The notes under the pieces were generated by a model. It was not told the DNA's origin. It was given only the letters and a program-made list of their open reading frames with translations, and ran no database searches. The position numbers and the translations under genes are program-made. A stretch of DNA of 46,891 nucleotides, taken from contig JAPLFX010000008.1 in NCBI GenBank assembly GCA_026390445.1, positions 1-46,891 of the forward strand, in the 5' to 3' direction. This document shows, piece by piece, positions 4,223-8,295 of this stretch (within the stretch, counting starts at the first letter, position 1; every line of letters starts with the position of its first letter). The DNA comes from Pseudomonadota bacterium. Lineage in GTDB: Bacteria; Bdellovibrionota_B; Oligoflexia; Oligoflexales; CAIYRB01.

Positions 4223-4915
4223 CTAATCGTGACATACAACCACCTTCACCAAGGCCTCCAAATCCGCAATCATCGCATTGGCTCGCATCGCCTTAGCAAA
4301 AGCATTTGCCGCCTCTTGGTCGTGTTGCCTCAGCCACTGAAACGCACTCTTTGGCCCCTGATACCAACGCCCTCGCAGCACGAAATAGTCCTCGAGCATG
4401 CTCATCACCAGCCAATGCCGCCGATAATTCCCCTCTAGGTCATCGACCTTCGCCCGATCGAGCATTTTCTGCGCCCAAACCCGCTTCGCTCGCGTCTCGT
4501 CGGCTGGCAACGCCCTCGGACCATGGGCGAAAATTTGCTGCAGCTTGCCGAGAAAGTCCGAGCCGATGGTGTCTTTCTCAACCAAAACCTTGCCACCCAG
4601 CATGTAAATTAAAGACTCGTCGGGTGCCTGTAACTTGGCCTCAGGAAAGACAAAAATATCCAAATAGACGCCCTGCCAGAGTCGTGCATCGCGCTCGACC
4701 TCCCCCTTAGGCCTGACGCCGAGAATATCGTAATCACTCGTGGCGGTGAAGTCTCCACGCGCTCGAGACCCATAAAGGATCACGGTATGGCAGCCGTGAT
4801 CCCGGCACAGGTCTGCCACGATCTGGACAAGCAAAGGGTCGGTCGAGGTGATCAAGTTAACTCCTGGCTGGCTGAAATTCGGGCCCATCCTGGTCCAAAC
4901 CTGAACCAAAGACAC
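4223..4915 (-). CDS. Nucleotidyltransferase-domain protein
   Basis: The motif GSRARGDFTATSDYDILG (about residues 49-66) is the GS...D.D active site of the pol-beta-like nucleotidyltransferase fold, with a third acidic residue probably in YLDIFVF. The C-terminal half (about 120-230) is helical and rich in W/Y/R, as in HEPN-like or substrate-binding domains fused to such enzymes. It may transfer a nucleotide to a small molecule, protein or RNA; the substrate cannot be read from sequence. The start is uncertain: a TTG at about 4852 has AGGAG five bases upstream, whereas the long form starts with GTG at 4915. It is divergent from the peptide operon at 5.0 kb. Confidence 0.75.
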   Translation of the reverse strand: MSLVQVWTRMGPNFSQPGVNLITSTDPLLVQIVADLCRDHGCHTVILYGSRARGDFTATSDYDILGVRPKGEVERDARLWQGVYLDIFVFPEAKLQAPDESLIYMLGGKVLVEKDTIGSDFLGKLQQIFAHGPRALPADETRAKRVWAQKMLDRAKVDDLEGNYRRHWLVMSMLEDYFVLRGRWYQGPKSAFQWLRQHDQEAANAFAKAMRANAMIADLEALVKVVVCHD

Positions 4916-4963
4916 ACCGCGCCAAAACGGCTGTGTGTTTAATTATCAGTAAAATCATCAATC

Positions 4964-4983
4964 ATCGCCTATGACGAGGCGAT
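4964..4983. promoter_or_regulatory. Inverted repeat next to the sigma-54 promoter
   Basis: ATCGCCT (4964-4970) and AGGCGAT (4977-4983) form a perfect 7-bp inverted repeat with a 6-base spacer, ending eight bases before the -24 element. The same arms occur in the hairpin after the peptide gene (5196-5228). It could be an operator or an RNA/DNA structural element; the role is not known. Confidence 0.45.
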
Positions 4984-4990
4984 CTCCGCG

Positions 4991-5006
4991 TGGCACGGAC
5001 TTTGCT
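4991..5006 (+). promoter_or_regulatory. Sigma-54 (-24/-12) promoter
   Basis: TGGCACGGACTTTGCT matches the sigma-54 consensus TGGCACG-N4-TTGCW at every specified base. GG (4992-4993) and GC (5004-5005) are separated by the required 10 bases. Transcription should start near 5017, about 45 bases before the peptide start codon at 5061. Known biology: such promoters need an enhancer-binding activator ATPase. None is encoded in this window, so the signal controlling the operon is unknown. Confidence 0.75.
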
Positions 5007-5060
5007 TATGGCATTTTGCGCAATGTCGCGCAAGTTTCACCATAAAAAGAGGTACTCACC

Positions 5061-5186
5061 ATGGCTATTGCCCACATCGTTTCCAGCGTCACAAGCGAAG
5101 ATCTCCGCAATGTTTCCATTCAGACTGCCGAAATGGAAAAGCTCGTCACTGCGATTCAGTTCAACATGATCGCTATCCAAAACTGA
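5061..5186 (+). CDS. Candidate RiPP precursor peptide (41 aa)
   Basis: An ATG at 5061, preceded by AAAAAGAGG at a spacing of 8 bases, opens a 41-codon frame ending with TGA at 5184-5186. The peptide begins MAIAHIVSSV, has a charged middle (SEDLRN, EMEK) and ends in an uncharged Gln/Asn/Ile-rich tail (TAIQFNMIAIQN). It has no cysteine, no secretory signal and no GG cleavage motif. It is the first gene after the sigma-54 promoter, and a hairpin plus a HExxH enzyme and an ABC exporter follow. That context, with the leader-like front and uncharged tail, suggests a ribosomally made, modified peptide. I recognise no homologue; the core boundary and the product are inferred. Confidence 0.65.
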   Translation: MAIAHIVSSVTSEDLRNVSIQTAEMEKLVTAIQFNMIAIQN

Positions 5187-5195
5187 ACTCGGGTC

Positions 5196-5228
5196 GGGAA
5201 GAGATCGCCTAAGAGGCGATCTCTTCCC
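5196..5228 (+). terminator. Perfect 15-bp hairpin between peptide and enzyme genes
   Basis: The stem arms are 5196-5210 and 5214-5228 (left arm GGGAAGAGATCGCCT), with loop AAG. All 15 pairs are Watson-Crick. No U-tract follows, so it is a weak or partial terminator, or an RNA stabiliser. Either would raise the amount of peptide mRNA relative to the downstream enzyme and exporter, as is common in peptide operons. It begins 10 bases after the peptide stop codon. Confidence 0.65.
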
Positions 5229-5255
5229 ACGTCGATTTAATCTAGAGGAACAGTC

Positions 5256-6125
5256 ATGATCAGCATCTTAGGTTCAGATCAAGTAATCAAAAGCATTTAC
5301 ATGCTTTCTAGACCGTATCTAGCGGGTGCTGAAATTTCCACTGTCGAACAACTTCGGTCGCCGTACCTGAAGTTCTTGTCGCAGCATCAACCTCGGCAGG
5401 TCTTAAATAACTCCAGCGATCCTGTAGCCATCGATGAGTCTGCCACTGCTGCCCTTAGCGGCGCGTTTGGACACAGCAAGTTCAACGATTTGTCACAGGA
5501 AAACATGCTTGGAGATCAGGTCGAAGCCGACGAAAAGCTGCGTCTCAAGGCGCTAGTTCGTGACGGCTACGCATTCCTCGCTAGCCGGAGTCCGGAAGTC
5601 AAAGCCATCTTTGACCTGGCCATCCACAGCATCTTTTTTGTCAAATCCAAGACAAACAAGCGAGGGCACAATTCATTCGGCGGATCCTCCTCGGGTGCCA
5701 TCGGATCGATCTGGGTGAGCGGTCAGGGTGACTTCAATAAATTCGATATTTCGGAATTTTTGCTGCATGAGCTGACGCATCATCTATTGTTCCTTGCCGA
5801 GCGCTGCGAGAACCAGTTTCACTATGATGCCATAGCACTACCCGAAAACTACGCCCAGTCGGCGATTCTGAACTACAGACGGCCGCTGGACAAAGTGGTG
5901 CACAGTATCGTCCTCTCGACTGAGATCATCCTAGCGCGCGATTCTTTTCTTGGGAATCAACGCGTCTCATTGCACCCATCGACTGAGGTCATGCTACAGC
6001 AGACTATCCTATCGATCGGTAGCGTCTTTGATCTCAAAAACCTTGATGACCTATTGACACCGTGGTCGATCGACATAGTGAAACGTTGCAACAACATCCT
6101 CAAATCATGCGGCAAAGCCGCCTAA
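5256..6125 (+). CDS. aKG-HExxH/mod_HExxH-like putative peptide-modifying enzyme
   Basis: A 289-residue cytosolic protein. Residues about 142-156 (GGSSSGAIGSIWVSG) precede a helix with HELTH at 171-175 (two metal-binding histidines and a glutamate). RRP at 208-210 and VVHS (His 216) follow, the latter a good third ligand. This order (Ser/Gly segment, x-W/F-S, HExxH, RP...H) is what I recall for the HExxH family found in RiPP clusters, some members of which are 2-oxoglutarate-dependent peptide beta-hydroxylases rather than proteases. The N-terminal 100 residues may bind the precursor. The start has AGAGGA seven bases upstream. The exporter gene follows after 12 bp. A metalloprotease role remains possible. 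Confidence 0.7.
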   Translation: MISILGSDQVIKSIYMLSRPYLAGAEISTVEQLRSPYLKFLSQHQPRQVLNNSSDPVAIDESATAALSGAFGHSKFNDLSQENMLGDQVEADEKLRLKALVRDGYAFLASRSPEVKAIFDLAIHSIFFVKSKTNKRGHNSFGGSSSGAIGSIWVSGQGDFNKFDISEFLLHELTHHLLFLAERCENQFHYDAIALPENYAQSAILNYRRPLDKVVHSIVLSTEIILARDSFLGNQRVSLHPSTEVMLQQTILSIGSVFDLKNLDDLLTPWSIDIVKRCNNILKSCGKAA

Positions 6126-6137
6126 GGCGATAGATCC

Positions 6138-7514
6138 ATGAGCAGTATTTTCAAAAACAAACTATTTAAATACGCCGCTGCGTTGTGTATCCTACAGCAG
6201 GTGTTCGTCGGTTTGTCGACGTTCATCATTGGCTCTGCAGGTGCATCGCTCGCCGATCCGAAGCGAGTTCTCCTCCTCCTCGGAGCTTTTTTTGGCTCAA
6301 GCGCTACGGCCTACGTGGTCGGCACCTCCTATCAGTGGTTAGCAGCGCGTTTGGCCAATGACCTCTGGAAGAAGTATGCCCTTGGCTTACTGGACGAACT
6401 CGGCAGAGATATGGGCTATGCATCCCCGGCCAACAGAAATTTGACCAATACCTGGCTGACCGGCGAAGCTCAGTCTACGCTGGAGCACGCCGCAAACTTT
6501 AGCCTCGATTTCCTCTCAATCAGCTGCAATGTTGTGTTTACCCTGGTTGCCTTCCTGGCTATTTTGGGCCCACTGATCACCGCCGCGATCGTCGTCGCTT
6601 TGATTTCGTCGTTCTGCCTGTTGGTTGCGGCACGGCGGGCGATCAAAAGCGCCGGCAACGAGATCCAAGGATCGAAGCTGGCAGCGTTCATGTCCGTACA
6701 ATCCCTGTGGGATCAGATCTTCTTCGGAAATGGGATGACACGTGCCGTTCCGGTTCAAAAGAATGAAACCTTGATGCTGAGCTACTTCAAGCAGGCTGAG
6801 CGCTACCGTTTGCTTGAACAAGGCGTCTCATGCCTGCCCATATTCCTATCCATGGCGGTACTCTATGTTGCGGTCGCTCACCAGATTAACCATGGAGCGA
6901 TCGTACTCGCGGCGTTAGTCGCGGTCCTACCGCGTTCACTTCAGCTCTTTCAGAACGTGCATACGATGACGACCTACAGCAGTCAGTTTCTTTTGCTGAA
7001 AGCCAAGCTGTCTAACCTTAAAGCCTTCAGCAGCCGCTTAGATCGACGCCACATGGGCCAGCATGTACAAAAGGACAAGATTTCGATCCTAGAAGTGACT
7101 AGCGAGACAATCATCTCGATCGATGATCTATTGGCACAGGTCGCCGCCAAATCCTTGCAGAAGACCGGACGACTGCGTTTAACCGGCAGTAACGGAGCAG
7201 GTAAATCATCGTTCCTGCGCGACATCAAGGCGTTGATCCCGCAGGCAGTCCTCGTCGGCCCTGATATTCATCTCCTGCCAGTTGAGACTAAAGGATCGAC
7301 GGGTCAGATCCAAAAACAAACACTCATGGCCCTCATGAAGCTGGATGTCGAGGTATTGCTGGTCGATGAGTGGGATGCCAACCTCGATCAGGTCAATATG
7401 GACCATGTCGATCAACAGCTTCAATCCTTTGCAGAAAGTGCTCTAGTGATCGAGGTACGGCATAGCCGCCAGGCCCAGACCAGCGCACACCAAGCTAAGC
7501 TTTTAGCGCAGTGA
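6138..7514 (+). CDS. Cyclic-peptide-type ABC exporter with compact ATPase domain
   Basis: A 458-residue fusion of membrane and ATPase domains. About six hydrophobic segments are seen (near 10-36, 43-65, 125-146, 148-168, 232-252 and 256-275). The ATPase domain has Walker A GSNGAGKS (about 350-357), STGQIQKQ in place of LSGGQ, Walker B VEVLLVDEWDANLD (Asp 410, Glu 411) and EVRH as the switch histidine. STGQ plus DEW is typical of the SyrD/PvdE/YojI cyclic-peptide exporter family. Walker A and B are only about 60 residues apart, roughly half the usual distance, so the helical subdomain is much reduced. No C39 leader-peptidase domain is present. It probably exports the modified peptide encoded upstream. 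Confidence 0.8.
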   Translation: MSSIFKNKLFKYAAALCILQQVFVGLSTFIIGSAGASLADPKRVLLLLGAFFGSSATAYVVGTSYQWLAARLANDLWKKYALGLLDELGRDMGYASPANRNLTNTWLTGEAQSTLEHAANFSLDFLSISCNVVFTLVAFLAILGPLITAAIVVALISSFCLLVAARRAIKSAGNEIQGSKLAAFMSVQSLWDQIFFGNGMTRAVPVQKNETLMLSYFKQAERYRLLEQGVSCLPIFLSMAVLYVAVAHQINHGAIVLAALVAVLPRSLQLFQNVHTMTTYSSQFLLLKAKLSNLKAFSSRLDRRHMGQHVQKDKISILEVTSETIISIDDLLAQVAAKSLQKTGRLRLTGSNGAGKSSFLRDIKALIPQAVLVGPDIHLLPVETKGSTGQIQKQTLMALMKLDVEVLLVDEWDANLDQVNMDHVDQQLQSFAESALVIEVRHSRQAQTSAHQAKLLAQ

Positions 7515-7578
7515 TCAAGGTTCATCCCGAATCCAGGACTAGTGCGCAAAGCTCGAAGGGTCGCAGCTGGACTGATCA

Positions 7579-8295
7579 CTAACTATCAAATCCCACATTC
7601 GGCAAATCAAAGACCATCACTTCTGAGTCGTCCCTACCAACGACCTTGATCTCTGCCTCGTCCCACACAGCAACCCCATCACCGGTTTGCAGTTGCTGCC
7701 CCTGCACGCTGACGCCACCTGTGACGATCTGGATCCAAGCGCGGCGCTTGGGTCTCAGCGGAAAGTGAAGATGGTCGTTTGCCTTCAGCCGCGCAACATA
7801 CAAATCGACATCCTGGTTGATCGCCACGGAAGCGTCGCGACCTTCCTTTGAGATCACCAAAACCAGCCCACCCCGCGCCAGCTCCGCACTGAAGTCCTTT
7901 TGTCCATAGCTTGGCGCCAAGCCCCGCTGAGTCGGCTGAATCCAGATCTGAAAAAAATGCGTCACTTTGTCGGTCTCGTGGTTCATTTCGGCGTGAACGA
8001 TGCCGCTACCAGCACTCATCCTTTGCACTTCACCTGGGCGAATCACCGTCTCGTTACCCATCGAATCACGGTGAGCGAGGCCGCCATCCACGACATAGGA
8101 AATGATCTCCATGTCGCGATGAGGGTGGGCGCCAAAGCCAGAGCCGCCCTCGATGCGGTCCTCATTGATGACCCGGAGGGTGCCGAATCCCCTATGCTCA
8201 GCATCGTGATATTCGGCGAAGGAAAACGTGTGCCGAGATTTTAGCCAGCCATGGTCGGCAAGCCCGCGCTGGTTCGATGGTCGAATCTTCAACAT
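7579..8295 (-). CDS. yhhW: Pirin-family bicupin (YhhW-like)
   Basis: A 238-residue protein, the normal length for the family. The N-terminal cupin shows FGTLRVINED, then GFGAHPHRDMEIISYVVDG (metal-binding His residues) and GIVHAEMNHE, the pirin signature. Residues 115-238 form the second, degenerate cupin. YhhW members can show quercetin 2,3-dioxygenase activity; the physiological role is usually a redox or stress-linked one and is not certain. It lies just downstream of the DoxX-like gene on the same strand, and both are divergent from a LysR regulator. This is a common arrangement for LysR-controlled pirin genes. Confidence 0.92.
   Translation of the reverse strand: MLKIRPSNQRGLADHGWLKSRHTFSFAEYHDAEHRGFGTLRVINEDRIEGGSGFGAHPHRDMEIISYVVDGGLAHRDSMGNETVIRPGEVQRMSAGSGIVHAEMNHETDKVTHFFQIWIQPTQRGLAPSYGQKDFSAELARGGLVLVISKEGRDASVAINQDVDLYVARLKANDHLHFPLRPKRRAWIQIVTGGVSVQGQQLQTGDGVAVWDEAEIKVVGRDDSEVMVFDLPNVGFDS

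What the first reader, a model, noticed from the sequence alone, without database searches (positions are those of the whole stretch)
4991..7514. Candidate new RiPP operon: sigma-54 promoter, 41-aa peptide, HExxH enzyme, cyclic-peptide exporter
Seen: a small peptide gene, a protein with HELTH and a third His, and a 6-TM ABC exporter with STGQ/DEW motifs, in one compact row behind a consensus sigma-54 promoter. Known: HExxH (mod_HExxH/aKG-HExxH) proteins occur in modified-peptide clusters and some hydroxylate peptides; STGQ/DEW exporters of the SyrD/PvdE/YojI type move cyclic or modified peptides. Inferred: the three genes make and secrete a modified peptide. There is no radical SAM enzyme, cyclase or protease, so this would be a minimal class.
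Basis: partly seen in the sequence, partly recalled or inferred. Interest (0 to 1): 0.9.

Follow-up and report, generated by a model that had tools for sequence, protein, structure and literature searches.

The report
One-enzyme peptide-modifying and export operon
A small bacterial operon makes a 41-residue peptide, an iron/2-oxoglutarate-type enzyme predicted to oxidise its tail and a pump to export it; related sets with the same peptide tail motif occur in other bacteria, suggesting a stripped-down kind of ribosomal natural product.

Summary
In detail: consensus sigma-54 site (4991-5006), 41-aa peptide (5061-5186), HExxH protein (5256-6125) and ABC exporter (6138-7514) in one row. The HExxH protein passes the curated cut-off of TIGR04267, aKG-HExxH-type peptide beta-hydroxylases; its family profile finds ChlH in the PDB. 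The peptide is a gene: against a same-genus relative, 5 of 5 base changes are synonymous. The set recurs with an MFS transporter in a same-class genome and with an ABC gene on an Acinetobacter plasmid; all three peptides carry (N/R)MIA(Y/I) near the C-terminus (17 of 2000 shuffles). A second enzyme clade, mainly on Staphylococcus plasmids, has MQ(I/L)H peptides. The exporter's compact-ATPase family elsewhere sits beside TP-methylases (SonM-like where tested) or DUF6875 proteins with Trp-ending peptides: a RiPP exporter whose partner enzyme is swapped. Best reading: a one-oxidase RiPP operon. Residue and reaction (beta-hydroxylation, or oxidative cleavage at the conserved Ala) are inferred; nothing is shown biochemically, and the row has no protease gene.

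The parts
4991..5006 (+). sigma-54 type promoter-like site (-24/-12), 54 bases before the peptide start codon
   Evidence: exact match to TGGCACGRNNNTTGCW; rpoN in the genome; same in L006; pattern not enriched genome-wide (3 matches against 3 for the control)
5061..5186 (+). precursor peptide gene, 41 aa, ending FNMIAIQN
   Evidence: 5 of 5 substitutions synonymous against L006; MIA block shared with L003 and L007
5163..5183 (+). codons of the C-terminal NMIAIQN, proposed core with the modification site(s)
   Evidence: (N/R)MIA(Y/I) in three different precursors; core assignment inferred
5196..5228 (+). 15-bp RNA hairpin between precursor and enzyme genes; no T-run follows, so more likely an mRNA stabiliser or partial terminator that keeps precursor above enzyme
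   Evidence: -33.6 kcal/mol for 5184-5258, z -5.28, 0 of 200 shuffles as stable; stem kept in L006, loop changed; role inferred
5256..6125 (+). aKG-HExxH-type peptide oxidase, 289 aa (HELTH 171-175, R209, H216)
   Evidence: TIGR04267 48 bits, cut-off 40; ChlH 8s5f hit by family profile, E 3.6e-12
6138..7514 (+). ABC exporter, 458 aa, membrane domain plus compact ATPase (GAGKS at 353, STGQ at 387)
   Evidence: family members lie beside other RiPP-type enzymes

Best explanation
A minimal RiPP operon. A sigma-54 promoter drives a precursor peptide whose N-terminal part acts as leader and whose last residues (NMIAIQN) are the core. The single stand-alone aKG-HExxH enzyme binds Fe(II) and 2-oxoglutarate and oxidises the core, either by beta-hydroxylation around N-M-I-A-I or by alpha-hydroxylation and backbone cleavage at the conserved Ala (which would leave a C-terminal amide). 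The product is exported by an ABC transporter of a family dedicated to such peptides. Shown by computation: gene content, coding constraint on the peptide, enzyme family membership, recurrence of the set and of the C-terminal motif, repeated association of the exporter with RiPP-type enzymes. Inferred: promoter activity, the leader/core division, the residue oxidised, which reaction occurs, leader removal (no protease here) and the role outside the cell (bacteriocin or signal).
For: TIGR04267 above cut-off; the family profile finds ChlH at E 3.6e-12, the next PDB hit at 0.22; the HExxH and RP...H segments align with ChlH there. Peptide under purifying selection. Peptide-HExxH-transporter recurs in L003 (MFS) and L007 (ABC). 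MIA block: 17 of 2000 shuffles reach it at width 6, 41 of 2000 at width 5. MIA precursors go with one enzyme clade (97/98 support) and MQ(I/L)H or MILK precursors with another (90/98, drawn open). The exporter family is next to HExxH (2) or a TP-methylase (3; the one compared with the PDB, L044, is SonM-like) in all 5 of the 58 phylum genomes that have it at E up to 1e-10, and next to DUF6875 on two plasmids.
Against: The window protein alone finds ChlH only at E 0.1. The peptide matched no Pfam or NCBIfam family, leader families included. No protease gene in the row. The MIA block statistic is moderate, and the same tests do not join the MIA and MQIH groups. Two plasmid relatives of the exporter (L010, whose gene is cut short beside an IS3-family transposase, and L011) have no modifying enzyme recognisable from the annotation beside them. 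The sigma-54 site is not seen at six other precursors. The structure model failed (mean pLDDT 34.7).
Confidence: 0.8

Rival explanations
1. The HExxH protein is a metalloprotease that trims the peptide hydrolytically before export; no oxidation takes place.
For: HExxH is a zincin motif; weak SprT-like similarity (E 0.35); Spartan at E 0.26-0.27 with the family profile. The related enzyme PflC hydrolyses its peptide when the leader is missing (PMC12636437, section 12 read).
Against: Curated family above cut-off is the hydroxylase; best structural relative is ChlH; R209 and H216 invariant in 11 of 11, an Arg fitting 2-oxoglutarate binding (inference).
Confidence: 0.12
2. The enzyme does both: beta-hydroxylation plus oxidative backbone cleavage at the Ala of MIA, releasing AIQN and leaving an amidated ...FNMI end, as PosC does at ARMD. 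(A specific form of the best explanation; its odds lie within that 0.8.)
For: PosC cleaves before Ala of a C-terminal tetrapeptide; small residues favour cleavage, larger ones beta-hydroxylation (PMC12636437, sections 11 and 13 read). Ala is present in all three MIA precursors and starts a C-terminal tetrapeptide here; in the MQIH precursors Ile or Leu stands there.
Against: No ARMD motif, no Gln run; in L003 and L007 the Ala begins a tail of 7 and 12 residues; no direct test.
Confidence: 0.25
3. Not a natural product: the peptide is an intracellular or membrane peptide (toxin-antitoxin or regulatory) and the ABC protein is its immunity pump.
For: Accessory distribution (HExxH gene not found in 4 of 6 genus genomes); relatives on plasmids and a phage of Spbetavirus type.
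Against: Same exporter family beside TP-methylases and DUF6875; the C-terminal motif tracks the modifying enzyme's clade while the transporter differs (ABC or MFS).
Confidence: 0.07

Closest known systems
ChlH / rSAM-fused aKG-HExxH (cyclophane RiPPs; PDB 8s5f)
   Same: HExxH domain, RP...H segment, peptide beta-hydroxylase family
   Different: no radical SAM domain or gene in the row, different precursor; the ChlH paper itself was not held, its chemistry is taken from PMC12636437 (introduction read)
PflC/PosC of the Pseudomonas pfl/pos clusters (PMC12636437, sections read)
   Same: aKG-HExxH enzyme acting near the C-terminus of a small precursor; no protease gene in the cluster
   Different: pfl encodes an acetyltransferase, an MNIO-nitroreductase and two transporters; ARMD and Gln run absent here; the 41-aa peptide matched no Pfam or NCBIfam family
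PesO of the nitrilobacillin cluster (PMC13060819) and BipH/BpmH of biphenomycin (PMC12707348, PMC12257519), passages seen
   Same: aKG-HExxH used as peptide beta-hydroxylase
   Different: there one of several tailoring enzymes; here the only one
McjD (microcin J25 exporter) and BmrA
   Same: ABC exporter membrane domain (profile hits)
   Different: about 65 residues between Walker A and signature are missing in the window family
SonM-type split borosin clusters
   Same: relatives of the window's exporter sit beside TP-methylases in L042-L044; the one compared with the PDB (L044) is SonM-like
   Different: the window has no N-methyltransferase in the row

Membership tests
aKG-HExxH peptide beta-hydroxylases (TIGR04267) | curated HMM score above cut-off | tested here: met
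   48 bits, cut-off 40
aKG-HExxH peptide beta-hydroxylases (TIGR04267) | HExxH motif with conserved third His and Arg, alignable to ChlH | tested here: met
   H171 E172 H175, R209, H216; HE..H and RP...H aligned in 8s5f; metal and 2-oxoglutarate roles of these residues are inferred
aKG-HExxH peptide beta-hydroxylases (TIGR04267) | Fe(II)/2-oxoglutarate/O2-dependent oxidation of a peptide | not testable with these tools
   needs enzyme assay
rSAM-fused aKG-HExxH (ChlBH) | fused or adjacent radical SAM enzyme | tested here: not met
   289-aa protein with only the TIGR04267 match; in the non-overlapping list of ORFs of 90 aa or more the row holds only the HExxH and ABC genes
Pfl/Pos-type HEXXH RiPPs | C-terminal Gln run plus ARMD | tested here: not met
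   peptide ends FNMIAIQN
RiPP biosynthetic operon | conserved precursor gene next to a peptide-modifying enzyme | tested here: met
RiPP biosynthetic operon | modified, leader-cleaved secreted product | not testable with these tools
   no protease gene in the row; needs mass spectrometry
SyrD/PvdE/YojI cyclic-peptide exporters | curated family match | tested here: not met
   44 NCBIfam families at E up to 1, best 25 shown, none of these above its cut-off and none of that name; the STGQ/DEW resemblance to that type is recalled only
SprT/zincin metalloproteases | family score above cut-off | tested here: not met
   SprT-like 11.2 bits, cut-off 25.6

The most novel reading that the evidence does not exclude
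A modular one-oxidase RiPP platform: a compact-ATPase ABC exporter stays while the single oxidase and the matching core are swapped (aKG-HExxH with MIA, DUF6875 with Trp-x-Trp ends), with borosin-type sets as a third partner; in the window the lone HExxH enzyme both oxidises the core and cuts its own substrate at the conserved Ala, giving a C-terminally amidated exported peptide without any protease or amidase.
Probability: 0.25. Interest if true: 0.8.

Novelty: new variant of a known kind. Interest (0 to 1): 0.62.

Why it matters
In the aKG-HExxH pathways I read about, the enzyme is one of several tailoring enzymes, which blurs what it does on its own. A three-gene system with a 41-residue substrate, one enzyme and one exporter would let substrate rules (hydroxylate or cut) be tested cleanly. 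The exporter family could also serve as a search hook for RiPPs with unrelated modifying enzymes (HExxH, DUF6875, TP-methylase), which searches that start from one enzyme family may miss.

Tried and rejected
Structure: single-sequence AlphaFold2 of the HExxH protein gave mean pLDDT 34.7, so no fold search was run. Viral contigs: two scans found no relative. The window HExxH protein (E up to 0.01) and ABC protein (E up to 1e-6) have no hit in the phage collection, while the S. warneri enzyme has one. Uniting motif: I first took MIA and MQIH as one motif; the tests did not support the link. Heuristic block search: all seven peptides, width 6, 61 of 200 shuffles reach the score, with a block elsewhere in the peptides; width 7, 5 of 200, with the three MIA ends aligned to leader parts of the other four; the quartet window/L007/L013/L062, 59 and 36 of 200. 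Exact triplets across groups: 228 to 540 of 2000, again with other blocks. So I claim two separate motifs. L062 (MILKEEE) joins the Firmicutes enzyme clade in the tree but not the MQIH block (1282 and 1421 of 2000). Mobile-cassette idea: the block shared with L006 is window 4777-7553 (94.7%), but parts of both window flanks occur on the same contig of G018, so it looks like one ancestral site with rearranged flanks. Anti-phage defence: PADLOC gave only a match over residues 387-443 for the ABC protein (mad3, E 6.7e-8) and none for the HExxH protein. PHROGs gave none for the window HExxH protein. In print: searches of the held library listed no paper whose title or abstract start describes a stand-alone HExxH + exporter operon or a DUF6875 RiPP; I read only the papers named in the report, in part, and subscription papers (the ChlH paper) were not held.
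Full report
Observation. Between peptide and enzyme lies a 15-bp hairpin (5196-5228; -33.6 kcal/mol for 5184-5258, z -5.28, 0 of 200 shuffles as stable). No T-run follows it. The flanking genes, a nucleotidyltransferase at 4223-4915 and a pirin at 7579-8295, are on the opposite strand, which bounds the operon.

Is the peptide a gene? A same-genus genome (G018; the same contig is locus L006, titled Umea_bin-10125) has the same trio. Compared codon by codon, the peptide gene differs at 5 bases, all third positions and all synonymous; 26 of its 123 sites are synonymous, so five by chance is about 4e-4. The enzyme gene has 20 synonymous and 10 non-synonymous changed codons, the exporter gene 55 and 19. 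The shared block is window 4777-7553. No match to the HExxH protein or the exporter was found in the other 4 of 6 genus genomes held.

Promoter. The site is an exact consensus and the genome has rpoN, but the pattern occurs 3 times in 4.17 Mb, no more than its reversed control (3). It is shared with L006 but was not found within 300 nt upstream of the precursors in L003, L007, L012, L013, L046 or L062 with up to 3 mismatches. A sigma-54 promoter here is plausible by position, not proven, and not a trait of the family.

Enzyme. NCBIfam TIGR04267 ('aKG-HExxH-type peptide beta-hydroxylase') is matched at 48 bits against a cut-off of 40; the five relatives scanned the same way (L003, L007, first gene of L012, L014, L062) also pass (47.3 to 62.3 bits). 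A profile of 11 sequences finds ChlH (8s5f) at E 3.6e-12; the next PDB sequence is at 0.22 and Spartan proteases at 0.26-0.27. The single window sequence finds ChlH first but only at E 0.1. G150, H175, R209 and H216 are invariant in all 11 and H171/E172 in 10; the exception, Streptomyces L047, has lost the HExxH motif. Pfam gives only a sub-threshold SprT-like match.

Recurrence. Genomes of the phylum: the protein search matches 5 of 58, the family search 10 of 58 (7 over the cut-off). In G051 (L003/L045) a 47-aa peptide ending SKYNMIAYDELSN precedes the HExxH gene (33% identity), followed by an MFS transporter. On an Acinetobacter plasmid (L007) a 71-aa peptide ending LRMIAYEDMTSEKVI precedes the HExxH gene (29%) and an ABC gene (20-22%). 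A second plasmid (SAAs470) carries the same HExxH protein and was not read further. The other HExxH loci of the phylum (L033-L041, L004/L005) do not show the MIA peptide in the ORF lists I made of them (in L035-L041 only ORFs of 30 aa or more were listed). The best ungapped block of the three different peptides is NMIAIQ/NMIAYD/RMIAYE, reached by 17 of 2000 shuffles at width 6 and 41 of 2000 at width 5; a heuristic version gave 0 of 200 at width 6 and 1 of 200 at width 7. In Staphylococcus and Cytobacillus plasmids the small ORF before the HExxH gene ends NMQIHDEE, RMQIHTKEK, RMQIHTEEK or carries VMQLHDEGN (L012, L013/L049, L048, L046), and 0 of 2000 shuffles reach the block of three of them (L012, L013, L046). 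Bacillus phage SPbetaL1 has a 66-aa peptide with VMILKEEE before its HExxH gene. In all 10 loci of these two groups that I read (window, L006, L003, L007, L012, L013, L049, L048, L046, L062) such a peptide directly precedes the enzyme gene or what is left of it. Two actinobacterial relatives have a small ORF before the gene with other ends (L014 NAAMMGGWT, L047 STMGCGTE). In a tree of 18 HExxH proteins the MIA enzymes form one clade (97/98) and the MQIH and MILK enzymes another (90/98, drawn open), so core type follows enzyme clade (L004, L035, L046, L048 and L049 were not included). Shuffles do not support joining the two motifs into one.

Exporter. Eight sequences align, with 20-31% identity to the window protein. 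Profile hits include BmrA and McjD, the microcin J25 exporter. Between the Walker A helix and the signature the window family has about 13-18 profile positions where McjD and BmrA have about 77-84 residues, so most of the helical subdomain seems to be missing; the ABC-F protein Lmo0919 aligns through this stretch without such a gap. In the phylum 5 of 58 genomes have this exporter at E up to 1e-10: two beside HExxH (G000, G018) and three (G045, G048, G049; L042-L044) beside a TP_methylase. The L044 methylase, the only one compared with the PDB, matches at E up to 1e-8 only TP-methylase entries, SonM borosin alpha-N-methyltransferase among them (best 5.2e-14); L043 and L044 also have a radical SAM protein. 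On plasmids (7 records): two beside DUF6875 (L008 Moraxella, 40-aa ORF ending PPVTPWRW; L009 Methylophaga, peptide ending CGWGGGWSW), two Acinetobacter plasmids that carry HExxH (one read), two with no enzyme recognisable from the annotation (L010, whose exporter gene is cut short beside an IS3-family transposase, and L011), and one ABC-F protein that is not an exporter. DUF6875 proteins are reported as heme-binding and capable of L-tryptophan oxidation (PMC13307353, passages seen), which fits the Trp-rich ends. I take this as evidence that the exporter family serves RiPPs whose modifying enzyme is swapped.

Mechanism. Reported aKG-HExxH enzymes hydroxylate His, Asp, Phe, Gln or Pro (PMC13060819, passages seen). 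PosC also cuts before Ala of a C-terminal ARMD, leaving an amide; Ala or Gly favours cutting, larger residues beta-hydroxylation (PMC12636437, abstract and sections 4, 6, 11, 12 and 13 read). Here Ala38 starts a C-terminal tetrapeptide (AIQN), and Ala is kept in all three MIA precursors while the MQIH precursors have Ile or Leu there. I therefore give oxidation of the core 0.8 overall, with cutting at Ala as a serious option (0.25). That pfl/pos also lacks a nearby protease gene makes its absence here less of an objection. The activity of the product is unknown; bacteriocin or signal are guesses.

Novelty. The enzyme family is known. A stand-alone HExxH enzyme with one short precursor and one exporter, the MIA and MQIH core motifs, and the shared compact-ATPase exporter did not appear in what I saw of the papers listed by searches (mostly titles and abstract starts; sections or passages of PMC12636437, PMC13060819, PMC12452194, PMC12257519, PMC12707348, PMC12614342, PMC7726476 and PMC13307353). 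I rate it a new variant of a known kind.

Noticed in passing
L008:3132-5323 and L009:4116-6329: DUF6875 gene (reported heme Trp oxidisers) between a small ORF ending in Trp (PWRW; GWGGGWSW) and the same exporter family: a candidate Trp-oxidised RiPP on Moraxella and Methylophaga plasmids.
   Followed up: partly
L043:3163-6648, L044:3042-6270, L042:474-4379: TP-methylase (SonM-like in L044, the one compared with the PDB) beside the compact-ATPase exporter, with a radical SAM protein in L043/L044 and another methyltransferase in L042: candidate borosin-type clusters in the window's class.
   Followed up: partly
L036-L041: A different HExxH set in the window's class and order: in 6 of 6 a gene for a protein of about 500 aa lies next to or near the HExxH gene, and in 5 of 6 (not L040) also a 66-108 aa small protein; the one large protein tested (L037) is a family 5 solute-binding protein (PF00496).
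   Followed up: partly
L034:3888-4858: 37-aa ORF ending EPRVDRAAF just before an HExxH gene; resembles the P-R(V/T)DN motif of nitrilobacillin precursors (PMC13060819).
   Followed up: no
L062:3756-4840: Bacillus phage SPbetaL1 carries a peptide plus HExxH pair, annotated only as hypothetical proteins.
   Followed up: partly
L047:3466-5827: Streptomyces plasmid: small peptide, an HExxH-family protein that has lost the HExxH motif, then a radical SAM gene; perhaps a partner protein rather than an enzyme.
   Followed up: no
L012:6733-10089: Plasmid with two consecutive HExxH genes after one MQIH peptide, then an MFS transporter.
   Followed up: no
window 5016-5033: TTGCGCAA-TG-TCGCGCAA repeat just downstream of the promoter-like site, identical in L006; possible operator.
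   Followed up: no
window 4223-4915: Nucleotidyltransferase gene (PF01909) on the other strand; in L006 only its start remains. Matches to PADLOC PDC-S09 models (best E 4.5e-7).
   Followed up: no
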